In this document: piece by piece, positions 5,367-35,189 of the stretch
Position numbering within the stretch: position 1 is the first letter of the stretch
Layout of the letters: each line of letters opens with the position of its first letter
Assembly (NCBI GenBank): GCA_026398175.1
Contig: JAPLTJ010000003.1
Coordinates: 1-35,189, forward strand
Reading direction: 5' to 3'
DNA from: Verrucomicrobiia bacterium
GTDB lineage: Bacteria > Verrucomicrobiota > Verrucomicrobiia > Chthoniobacterales > UBA6821
DNA: 35,189 bases
Program-made: the position numbers and the translations under genes
Notes under the pieces: generated by a model
Databases searched by the model: none
Seen by the model: the letters and a program-made list of their open reading frames with translations, nothing else
Told to the model about the DNA's origin: nothing

Positions 5367-5397
5367 AATTTTTTGCCAATATTACTGGAAAAATTTA

Positions 5398-5467
5398 AAC
5401 CGCGAAATACGCAAAATAACACGAAAAAGAAAATTTATTTTAGCGAGTTTTAGCGAATTTAGTGGTT
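5398..5467 (+). repeat. AACCGC/GCGGTT dispersed element, copy A
   Basis: A 70-bp copy of a dispersed repeat that starts AACCGCGAAATACGC and ends TTTAGTGGTTT, with ends that are imperfect inverted repeats of each other. The inner part carries a degenerate 9-10 bp period (CGCGAAA, CGCAAAA, CACGAAAA) and then TTTTAGCGA repeats. Copies B (23686-23753, reversed) and C (29736-29795) match over their full length. Copy A lies in the cydA-cydB gap, in the orientation opposite to transcription. Confidence 0.75.
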
Positions 5468-21494: not shown

Positions 21495-21635
21495 TAGAGC
21501 GTTTTAAATGAAGTTGCAGCCGATGCAGTGCCAGGAACGAGAAGCGCAGACCCGCAGTGTATATCTAATACTCGAGGACGCGAGCACCGGAGTGACGCCG
21601 CAATGCGCGGCTACAACTTTAGTGAAAATGCTCTA
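21495..21635. repeat. Modular palindromic element, copy RA1 (141 bp)
   Basis: Terminal inverted repeats of 28 bp (21495-21522 and 21608-21635) match at about 23 positions; the outermost bases are TAGAGC and GCTCTA. The core (about 21530-21600) holds TGCCAGGAACGAGAAGCGCA, a small hairpin around GTGTATATCTAATACTC, and CGAGCACCGGAGTGACGCCG. Copies RA2 and RA3 share the core but not the arm sequence. It lies in the 361-bp gap after atpC, which has no gene. Confidence 0.8.
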
Positions 21636-21638
21636 AAC

Positions 21639-21765
21639 TGACTCAGGAATTCGCTAATACATGCGGCGTGGAGCCGCCGGATCGACTACCGAAGGCAGCC
21701 CCGTAGGGGGCGCCTCGTGGGCGCGAGCACTGGCAGAACACAGCTCTTCGCCGCAGCAGTACAAT
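21639..21765. repeat. Modular palindromic element, multi-hairpin module RB1
   Basis: A run of small hairpins, including GCGGC/GCCGC (21663-21667 and 21673-21677) and CCCC/GGGG (21699-21702 and 21706-21709). The same order occurs at 31608-31743 with compensatory base changes. It begins with the left-arm sequence GGAATTCGCTAATAC and ends inside a truncated core. It stands directly after the stop of atpC (minus strand) and could act in the 3' end of the atp transcript. Confidence 0.7.
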
Positions 21766-22216: not shown

Positions 22217-23753
<1,537 letters not shown>

Positions 23754-23785
23754 GAGATTCTTTGTGTTCTTTGCGGCTAATTTTC

Positions 23786-27236: not shown

Positions 27237-27278
27237 GGGAAAAAATAAGTCAGTTTGCGGCGATACGATTCAAATCAG

Positions 27279-27420
27279 AAACTTTCTTCAAAATTCGCTG
27301 ATGCCAAGAAGTACCAGGAACCTCGCAGCGCAGACGCTGAGCGTATATTAATACGTGAAGCGGAAAGCACCGGAGTGACGCCGTAATTCTTGAGCATCAG
27401 TAAAATTTTCAGGGAAGTTT
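27279..27420. repeat. Modular palindromic element, copy RA2 (142 bp), between atpE and atpF
   Basis: Terminal inverted repeats of about 33 bp start AAACTTTC (27279) and end GGAAGTTT (27420), and include CTGATGC/GCATCAG. The core has TACCAGGAACC, AGCGCAGACGCTGAGCGTATA and AAAGCACCGGAGTGACGCCG. Total length is almost the same as RA1 (141 bp). The right end coincides with the first base of the atpE stop codon complement, so the element was placed precisely between two genes of an essential operon. Confidence 0.8.
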
Positions 27421-29725: not shown

Positions 29726-29735
29726 AAAAAAGACA

Positions 29736-29848
29736 AACCGCGAAAGACGCGAAAGAACGCGAAAAAGGCTTTTTTATTTAGCGAGTTTAGCGGTTAAATA
29801 TTTCATGCGACAACAATTCTTCAACTTCAACTTTTAACTTTAACTTTA
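29736..29848 (+). repeat. Composite AACCGC element (copy C) plus CTTCAA leader of accA
   Basis: 29736-29795 is a 60-bp copy of the element (AACCGCGAAAGACGC to TTTAGCGGTT). It is followed by TTAAATATTTCATGCGACAA and units TTCTTCAA, CTTCAA, CTTTTAA, CTTTAA, CTTTA up to the accA ATG. The order and sequence closely match the atpD leader, although accA and atpD are unrelated genes. Confidence 0.75.
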
Positions 29849-31589: not shown

Positions 31590-31743
31590 TGAGAGTGTGT
31601 TTTAAATTCGCTGAGGCAAATACGTACGGCGTGGTAGCCGTCGGATCGACTGCCAGAAGGCAGCCTCAAAGAGGCGAGCCTCGCGGGAGCGAGCGAGTTG
31701 CATACAGGACAAGGAACGGCGGCGCACAGCGGCTGAGTGTTAC
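31590..31743. repeat. Modular palindromic element, multi-hairpin module RB2 with truncated core
   Basis: The left arm GTTTTAAATTCGCTGAGGC is followed by hairpins ACGGC/GCCGT (31626-31630, 31637-31641), CTGCC/GGCAG (31650-31654, 31659-31663) and GCCTC/GAGGC (31663-31667, 31671-31675). It then runs into GGCGCACAGCGGCTGAGTGT, the first half of the RA core, before breaking off. The changes relative to RB1 keep base pairing. The 373-bp gap between rsmI and lptE holds this copy and RC copy 2, and no gene. Confidence 0.75.
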
Positions 31744-33897: not shown

Positions 33898-34947
33898 CTA
33901 ACAGCGCACTAACAGGGATAACAAAGCACCAAAAAACAAAACTTGATCAGCCGCAAGAGCAGCAACTTCATAACCCCAACGCCGCCCTATCATCGGAAGG
34001 AGCATTAATCCAACGAGACTCCAGCAGAGAGCTTTCAGGATTGAAGGAAATGGAAAAACAAAAAGAATTAAAAATAACGACAGCCACAAAACTGATCGCG
34101 GAGAAAAAAATATTTTTGGAGCCAATGGTAAAACTAGATTTCTTTCCAAACTCGCTTCTGGCGATAACCGAGCCTCTTGGGAAGAGGCGAGATGCCTCTC
34201 ATCAGAGAGCCCAGAAGGCGAGCAGTCGGGCAGACTGCGAGGCCAAGTGCCAGGAGCCTCCGGCGCACAGCGGCTGAGTGTATAGTTAACACTCGATGAC
34301 GCGAGCACCGGAGCGACGCCGCAATTCGCGTCAGAAGTAGAGTTTCGAAAGAAATCTATCCGCTCCATCCGAGCAATCAACGTGCAGTTGATCAAAGCAA
34401 CTGCTGCAAAAGCCATCATCCATGGCAAAAGCAACCAAGGTCGATCACCTTGAACTAGCGCTACAAAAGCACATCCAAGTGAAAAAATAATGGAAATGAC
34501 AATTTCTCTCCCCTTCAACCAACGCCCTCTTCGCAGAAAAAAATGATTGAGCAGAAGATAACTCAACGTGATCACTGCCAATCCCATTCCAGCTATCAAG
34601 AGCCTTAATCCGAGATGCCATAACAGCAAAACATTAGCAAACGAGGCCAGCACAAGAAAACTTCCTAATAGCAAACGATGAGACCTGACATAATGATGCC
34701 GCGGCGCTTTGTTGGAAAAAAAACCTGCCGTGGAACGAAGATCTACCATGGCGTCCAGCCAGTGGTCGATGACATATACAATCCAAATAGAAATCGCTAA
34801 AAAAGCTCTTTCTTCCCATCGCAAAGTAACGGTAGCCGTGCGAGCAAAAACCTCTTGCCATGCTAGAGCGATCAAAACGACATCAAGCGAAAGAAGATTC
34901 AGCCAGCGAAAAAAAGAAAGAAATAAGCCAACGTCTAGAAACCTCAC
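33898..34947 (-). CDS. Polytopic membrane protein (possibly UbiA-superfamily-like) containing an in-frame palindromic element
   Basis: A 349-residue membrane protein with about eight hydrophobic helices. The segment FLAISIWIVYVIDHWLDAMVDLRS (about 49-72) contains an Asp-rich xDxxxDxxxD pattern loosely like the first motif of UbiA prenyltransferases, and HHYVRSHR follows; the family call is weak. Residues about 198-271 are not membrane-like. They are encoded by palindromic element RA3 (34136-34356) and are rich in Ser, Pro, Arg and Glu. The helices resume at PRSVLWLSLFLILFVFPFPS. Without the element the protein would be about 275 residues. The start is GTG at 34947; no Shine-Dalgarno sequence is seen. 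Whether the product works with the insert is unknown. Confidence 0.6.
   Translation of the reverse strand: MRFLDVGLFLSFFRWLNLLSLDVVLIALAWQEVFARTATVTLRWEERAFLAISIWIVYVIDHWLDAMVDLRSTAGFFSNKAPRHHYVRSHRLLLGSFLVLASFANVLLLWHLGLRLLIAGMGLAVITLSYLLLNHFFLRRGRWLKGREIVISIIFSLGCAFVALVQGDRPWLLLPWMMAFAAVALINCTLIARMERIDFFRNSTSDANCGVAPVLASSSVNYTLSRCAPEAPGTWPRSLPDCSPSGLSDERHLASSQEARLSPEASLERNLVLPLAPKIFFSPRSVLWLSLFLILFVFPFPSILKALCWSLVGLMLLPMIGRRWGYEVAALAADQVLFFGALLSLLVRC
34136..34356. repeat. Modular palindromic element, full copy RA3 (221 bp), inside a coding region
   Basis: Terminal inverted repeats start AGATTTCTTTC (34136) and end GAAAGAAATCT (34356), and include CTTCTGGCG matched by CGTCAGAAG. The left part is the multi-hairpin module (CCTCTT/AAGAGG, GCCTCTC/GAGAG, CAGTC/GACTG). 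The right part is the core (TGCCAGGAGCCTCC, the GAGTGT/ACACTC hairpin at 34275-34292, CGAGCACCGGAGCGACGCCG). The membrane-protein frame runs through it without a stop. This is the only copy here with both modules and both arms. Confidence 0.8.
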
Positions 34948-35146: not shown

Positions 35147-35189
35147 ATGGCCAGAGGCTATCATCATGTAACCAGAGACAAACGATCTC
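35147..35189 (+). CDS. IS30-type transposase, first 14 codons (cut by window edge)
   Basis: ATG at 35147 follows a good Shine-Dalgarno sequence (AAGGAG, 35135-35140), one of very few in the window. The frame begins MARGYHHVTRDKRS and runs off the end. The pattern RGYHHVTxDxR matches N-termini of IS30-family transposases (xYHxLTxEERxxI). The real Shine-Dalgarno, unlike those of the resident genes, fits a mobile element of outside origin. Only 14 residues are visible, so this is a tentative call. Confidence 0.5.
   Translation, partial: MARGYHHVTRDKRS

What the first reader, a model, noticed from the sequence alone, without database searches (positions are those of the whole stretch)
34136..34356. 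Palindromic repeat inserted in frame inside a membrane-protein gene (RPE-like)
The 221-bp element RA3 has terminal inverted repeats and a core that recurs in intergenic regions at 21495-21635 and 27279-27420. Here it lies inside the 349-codon membrane-protein gene and is translated without a stop as about 74 hydrophilic residues between membrane helices. This is the behaviour known for Rickettsia and Wolbachia palindromic elements, but the core sequence does not resemble any such element I remember. It would be a new coding-compatible palindromic family.
Basis: partly seen in the sequence, partly recalled or inferred. Interest (0 to 1): 0.85.

Follow-up and report, generated by a model that had tools for sequence, protein, structure and literature searches.

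The report
RPE1-like palindromes inside freshwater bacterial genes
A 147-base hairpin repeat inserts without breaking the reading frame into dozens of essential genes of a freshwater Verrucomicrobiota genus, and its encoded peptide matches RPE1, a selfish element described from the intracellular bacterium Rickettsia, so this odd lifestyle appears to have crossed phyla.

Summary
Window 34135-34358 is a palindromic repeat lying in frame in a prenyltransferase-like membrane-protein gene. Orthologues in three sister species lack the insert.

The repeat is a family of about 145-bp imperfect hairpins. At least 83 copies score in the window's genome and at least 83 in a sister species. Of 120 copies examined, 56 lie inside long ORFs (SecA, LeuRS, MetRS, aconitase, DnaX, Tgt, MiaB, PriA, TIM and others). 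All 56 have a frame-preserving length and one codon register, which is open on either strand. Clean empty sites in the sister species show a net insertion of 147 bp (49 codons).

"A new family" is not supported. Read on the element's sense strand, it matches TIGR01045, the Rickettsia RPE1 peptide model, end to end (best copy 40.5 bits; cut-off 30). Among 213 genomes of the order, only this genus matches. The best reading is an RPE1-related mobile coding palindrome in Chthoniobacterales (Verrucomicrobiota), read from both strands and recently active.

Caveats: only two copies exceed the RPE1 cut-off. The window copy itself does not match, because its gene reads the antisense strand and it carries a nested repeat. 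No Rickettsia DNA was available for direct comparison. The mobilising enzyme is unknown.

The parts
34135..34358 (+). RPE1-like palindromic element, composite copy; strand given is the element's sense strand (the host gene reads the other strand)
   Evidence: (core 86.7 bits)
34166..34245 (+). nested 78-80 bp repeat inside the element, also in frame; only other copy seen is L197:4096-4175 (95% identical)
33898..34947 (-). host gene: 349-aa LA_0991-family prenyltransferase-like (UbiA-like) membrane protein; insert about residues 198-271
27278..27420 (+). intergenic copy of the element
   Evidence: 91.1 bits
21496..21633 (+). intergenic copy of the element
   Evidence: 92.3 bits
31720..31740 (+). 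21-bp exact fragment of the element core (truncated copy)
   Evidence: family D12
31620..31700 (+). copy of a second, 81-bp repeat family that also nests inside RPE1-like copies elsewhere
21657..21727 (+). copy of the second, 81-bp repeat family

Best explanation
An RPE1-related mobile palindromic element in a Chthoniobacterales (Verrucomicrobiota) genus. Shown: about 145-bp hairpin copies insert at many sites as a net 147 bp (49 codons). They are tolerated inside genes only when they fall in the one codon register that is stop-free on both strands, so the ORF continues through 49 extra, mostly hydrophilic residues. Inferred: the insert is translated and remains as a flexible surface loop, as was shown experimentally for an RPE in Rickettsia guanylate kinase (reported in PMC2229807). 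The element copies itself in trans through a strand-specific folded single-stranded (RNA or ssDNA) intermediate, using an unidentified enzyme. It entered this genus by horizontal transfer, or it shares an old mobile ancestor with Rickettsia RPE1.
For: RPE1 model: P0002 40.5 bits, E 2e-10, 48/48 positions; reversed and scrambled controls give nothing. G003:C108 38.7 and G005:C44 32.4 bits are over the cut-off of 30. Five gene-borne sense-frame inserts score 17-30 bits, nearly end to end. Hits at E<=0.01 occur in 4 of 213 order genomes, all in this genus; 0 of 14 controls exceed the cut-off. Insertion: 56/120 copies in long ORFs, all of length 1 mod 3 versus 25/64 others, Fisher p 7e-15; read frames open, other frames mostly closed. 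DNA-level empty sites between two species with net 147 or 228 bp. Conserved hosts; PDB homologues of SecA and Tgt break exactly at the insert, those of aconitase at the block that holds it. Window host: orthologues lack it; model confidence is below 50 only around the insert, at the N-terminus and at 72-79. Structure: 33 of 46 pairs with compensatory changes; the sense strand folds better in 31 of 32 copies whose gene reads the antisense strand.
Against: Only two copies exceed the RPE1 cut-off, neither in a long ORF. The window copy does not match RPE1 in either frame. No Rickettsia RPE1 DNA could be compared. No transposase or autonomous parent was found. Orthologous copies are 97.7% identical against 89.0% for flanks, which plain neutral selfish DNA would not predict. 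No expression data.
Confidence: 0.82

Rival explanations
1. An unrelated coding palindrome family that evolved independently in this genus; the RPE1 model match is convergence imposed by a stop-free hairpin of the same length.
For: Most copies score below the RPE1 cut-off, antisense-frame peptides do not match at all, and the window copy does not match. Independent coding palindromes exist in Wolbachia and Methanocaldococcus (cited in PMC2996958).
Against: 40.5 bits over all 48 positions, same length and same register, with ends coinciding with the DNA element's ends. Reversed and scrambled peptides give nothing. 207 order genomes outside this genus and the 14 control genomes give no comparable hit.
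Confidence: 0.12
2. The inserts are removed from RNA (intron-like) or skipped by the ribosome (byp-like), so the proteins are uninterrupted.
For: Very stable hairpin with compensatory changes; essential genes such as SecA and LeuRS tolerate it.
Against: Gene-borne copies keep length = 1 mod 3 in 56/56 and a stop-free register, whereas other copies do not. Removal would free both. Copies sit in either orientation, so many mRNAs carry the weaker-folding strand.
Confidence: 0.04
3. The copies are domesticated: they have a host function (for example as RNA stability or regulatory hairpins, or as useful protein loops) that keeps them.
For: Copies shared by two species, including intergenic ones, are 97.7% identical against 89.0% for flanks, p 1e-25.
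Against: Many sites are polymorphic between sister species, with clean empty sites; hosts are functionally unrelated; flanks were compared over 400 bp only and few shared pairs were available.
Confidence: 0.15
4. Assembly or binning artefact, such as contamination with Rickettsia DNA in the MAGs.
For: The named relatives are metagenome-assembled genomes.
Against: Copies lie inside genes whose orthologues and empty sites are found in sister species. Independent MAGs from different sites carry them, and the window's genome shows 0.12% contamination.
Confidence: 0.02

Closest known systems
Rickettsia palindromic element RPE1 (NCBIfam TIGR01045)
   Same: About 48-codon palindrome with terminal inverted repeats, intergenic and in-gene copies, in-frame insertion into conserved genes, peptide model matched end to end. 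RPEs are 105-146 bp with TIRs according to PMC2229807.
   Different: Other phylum; in-gene copies read from either strand (35 antisense, 21 sense); at least 83 copies per genome in two species; recent polymorphism; most copies below the RPE1 cut-off; nested in-frame secondary repeats.
Other RPE families (RPE2-RPE8) and the Wolbachia palindromic elements
   Same: In-frame coding palindromes inside conserved genes, according to PMC3767692 and PMC2996958.
   Different: No NCBIfam match to any palindromic-element family other than RPE1; DNA not compared.
Methanocaldococcus jannaschii coding palindromic repeats
   Same: Coding palindromic repeats in housekeeping genes (cited in PMC2996958).
   Different: Archaeal; not compared in sequence.
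Bacterial MITEs with ORFs (ERIC, Correia/NEMIS)
   Same: Small non-autonomous hairpins with occasional in-frame fusions (PMC2229807, PMC10969869).
   Different: No consistent target-site duplication seen (microhomology 0-10 bp in the usable cases) and no parent transposase found; in-gene, frame-keeping copies are about half of those examined here.
REP/RAYT systems
   Same: Structured palindromes; Y1_Tnp genes occur in the three copy-rich genomes.
   Different: Element about four times longer; Y1_Tnp genes are not flanked by copies.

Membership tests
Rickettsia palindromic element RPE1 | about 100-150 bp dispersed palindrome with terminal inverted repeats and a long stem-loop | tested here: met
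   145-position hairpin, 46 pairs, 33 with compensatory changes
Rickettsia palindromic element RPE1 | copies both between genes and inside ORFs without breaking the frame | tested here: met
   56 of 120 copies in long ORFs, all frame-preserving
Rickettsia palindromic element RPE1 | encoded peptide matches TIGR01045 above its curated cut-off | tested here: met
   Family level: two copies over the cut-off (38.7 and 32.4 bits), one more peptide at 30.1 when scanned alone; most copies below it
Rickettsia palindromic element RPE1 | the window copy's own peptide matches TIGR01045 (a test of this single copy, not a defining feature of the DNA family) | tested here: not met
   Neither the translated antisense insert nor the interrupted sense frame matches; the window copy joins the family through DNA identity of its core (91-96% to the nearest copies), not through its peptide
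Rickettsia palindromic element RPE1 | DNA and hairpin homology to Rickettsia RPE1 copies | not testable with these tools
   No Rickettsia records could be reached
Rickettsia palindromic element RPE1 | insert is a clean addition relative to orthologues | tested here: met
   DNA empty sites; protein orthologues of the window gene
IS-derived MITE | fixed-length target-site duplication and TIRs shared with an autonomous IS | tested here: inconclusive
   No constant duplication; arms found with at most 2 mismatches mostly coincide with known copies
RAYT/REP system | Y1_Tnp gene flanked by the repeats | tested here: not met
   Y1_Tnp loci of G000, G002 and G005 carry no copy
Structured RNA family in Rfam | match above the gathering score | tested here: not met
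   no match in the window

The most novel reading that the evidence does not exclude
RPE1 is not a Rickettsia speciality but one branch of a broadly mobile hairpin superfamily that moves between phyla as a folded single-stranded intermediate. It has evolved to be readable as protein on both strands, and it is still transposing in freshwater Verrucomicrobiota. A shared core in a distant genus of the same phylum may be another branch.
Probability: 0.5. Interest if true: 0.9.

Novelty: new variant of a known kind. Interest (0 to 1): 0.8.

Why it matters
Coding palindromes of the RPE type have been treated mainly as a peculiarity of Rickettsia and Wolbachia, and how they move is unknown. A second, unrelated host phylum with at least 83 copies per genome in two species, empty sites in sister species and in-frame inserts in SecA, LeuRS, DnaX, PriA and many other core proteins shows that this way of remodelling proteins is not restricted to that lineage. 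It also gives a group not known as pathogens in which to look for the mobilising enzyme and the protein-level cost. No paper found in the held library describes RPEs outside Rickettsiales and Wolbachia, although that library lacks most subscription journals.

Tried and rejected
Rfam: nothing. Pfam for the host protein and inserts: nothing useful. RPE1-like peptides or element DNA in plasmids, phages, PDB and viral contigs: no relative. Rickettsia plasmid accessions tried from memory are not in the plasmid collection. The original Ogata 2002 paper is not held. Reverse transcriptase as mobiliser: present only in G000 (a frame with a stop) and G002 within the genus, so it does not track copy number. 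RAYT-type Y1_Tnp: tracks the copy-rich genomes but is not flanked by copies. Arm sequences without a core, as a sign of an autonomous parent: no clear case. ATP/ADP translocase as a sign of intracellular life: nothing found, but the control genomes did not ring either, so this is uninformative. RNA-level excision was rejected on frame and stop statistics.

Full report
Observation. The core recurs at 21496-21633 and 27278-27420. The own genome holds about 43 BLAST-visible copies of the core. A covariance model built from 36 copies scores 83 copies in the own genome and 83 in G005 (both at the scoring cap), 56 in G002, 27 in G001, 25 in G003 and 7 in G004, against only two weak single hits in 16 genomes of the sister genus.

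Taxon. The named relatives carrying the core are MAGs, several from lakes or ponds, labelled Chthoniobacterales, Verrucomicrobia or Spartobacteria. A 388-genome sample of the phylum gave strong hits only in this genus, plus weaker hits (up to 57 bits) in one distant genus whose copies share the core GCACAGCG..GAGTGTAC..GTACTCGA..GCGAGCA. Those copies lie in short ORFs or tandem arrays, with no sign of in-gene insertion.

Anatomy. A standard copy is about 145 bp and folds as one long hairpin (z about -7 to -10 on the sense strand). 33 of 46 consensus pairs show compensatory changes. G-U pairs outnumber A-C mismatches 187 to 86, leaving out two conserved G-U pairs, and the sense strand folds better even in 31 of 32 copies whose gene reads the antisense strand. 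This points to selection on a single-stranded form of the element itself rather than on host mRNA. A caution: the alignment was fitted to the model, and correction between the arms of a quasi-palindrome could also make arms covary. The window copy is composite, with a 78-80 bp nested repeat at 34166-34245.

Insertion into genes. Of 120 copies examined in G000 and G005, 56 lie in long ORFs. The 120 are mainly the best-scoring copies, not a random sample. All 56 have length 1 mod 3 in model coordinates, against 25 of 64 others (Fisher p 7e-15). All use one codon register, on the sense strand in 21 and the antisense strand in 35. In gene-borne copies both strands of that register are mostly open (0.74 sense, 0.98 antisense), whereas in other copies the sense register is open in 7%. 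ORF openness was part of how in-gene copies were recognised; length was constrained only indirectly.

Hosts include SecA, LeuRS, MetRS, aconitase, DnaX, HolA, IspH, Tgt, MiaB, PurF, NuoG, PriA, PEP carboxylase, UDP-galactopyranose mutase, TsaC, a CoaE-Rho ORF with two inserts, RsmE, homoserine dehydrogenase, a PBP2-like protein, RibD, TIM, PurD, TatD and acetate kinase. PDB homologues of SecA and Tgt break at the insert, and those of aconitase at the region that holds it.

Empty sites. DNA of G000 and G005 is mostly about 80-95% identical in shared loci. For 14 gene-borne copies the other species has the empty site. The clean cases give a net insertion of exactly 147 bp, or 228 = 147 + 81 for a nested (intergenic) copy, with breakpoint microhomology of 0-10 bp and no constant target-site duplication. 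For the window gene, orthologues in G001, G003 and G004 lack the insert. The host is an LA_0991-family prenyltransferase-like protein whose profile match ends at residue 196, with a weak fold similarity to UbiA. AlphaFold gives pLDDT below 50 for residues 202-280, while most of the rest scores 70-90.

Relation to RPE1. In the element's sense frame the inserts match NCBIfam TIGR01045 (RPE1): 38.7 and 32.4 bits for two copies, over the cut-off of 30; 40.5 bits, E 2e-10, for the best peptide, with reversed and scrambled peptides blank; 17-30 bits for five gene-borne inserts. Among 213 genomes of the order, only species of this genus hit at E <= 0.01, and none of 14 control genomes exceeded the cut-off. 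The best match spans the whole profile and the whole element, in the register used by the genes. I therefore file the family as RPE1-related; the window copy joins it through DNA, not through its own peptide. No Rickettsia DNA could be reached, so DNA-level homology remains untested. That TIGR01045 was built from Rickettsia sequences is my own knowledge.

Literature. RPEs are described as 105-146 bp palindromes with TIRs, fused in frame in Rickettsia genes, with translation and activity shown for guanylate kinase (PMC2229807). RPE-1, -2 and -3 are the ones frequent in ORFs (PMC3767692). Coding palindromes are otherwise cited for Wolbachia and Methanocaldococcus (PMC2996958). A 2024 review says a similar mechanism in other prokaryotes is conceivable (PMC10969869). 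I found no report outside these groups.

Mechanism. Shown: repeated, recent, frame-selected insertion. Inferred: translation of the loop, a folded single-stranded mobile form, mobilisation in trans, and transfer between phyla. Unexplained: shared copies are 97.7% identical against 89.0% for flanks, so selection or conversion may act on the copies themselves.

Noticed in passing
window 31620-31700 and 21657-21727; L143:3025-3105: A second repeat family of 81 bp (27 codons), about 18 copies in the loci held, also nests in frame inside RPE1-like copies; in the TsaC gene G000 has the nested unit while G005 has the same outer copy without it.
   Followed up: partly
L145/L165, L129/L184, L160/L190, L132/L194, L147/L169: Copies shared by two species, intergenic ones included, diverge about five times less than their flanks (97.7% against 89.0% identity).
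   Followed up: partly
L247-L261 (genomes G508, G533, G590): A distant genus of the same phylum carries hairpins with the same core motif, some in tandem arrays; possibly another branch of the superfamily.
   Followed up: partly
L196:486-2675: One ORF joins CoaE (dephospho-CoA kinase) and transcription terminator Rho and carries two RPE1-like inserts.
   Followed up: no
L197:4096-4269 (G005:C52): The window's composite copy, nested unit included, has an 85% identical counterpart in G005, apparently at another site, so the composite may have moved as one unit.
   Followed up: no
window 35149-35189: Start of an ORF (MARGYHHVTRDKRS...) that looks like an IS30-type transposase at the contig end; identification from memory only.
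   Followed up: no
window 5389-5467, 23636-23762, 29727-29845: Further dispersed AT-rich repeats (AACCGCGAAAKACGC...) in both orientations.
   Followed up: no
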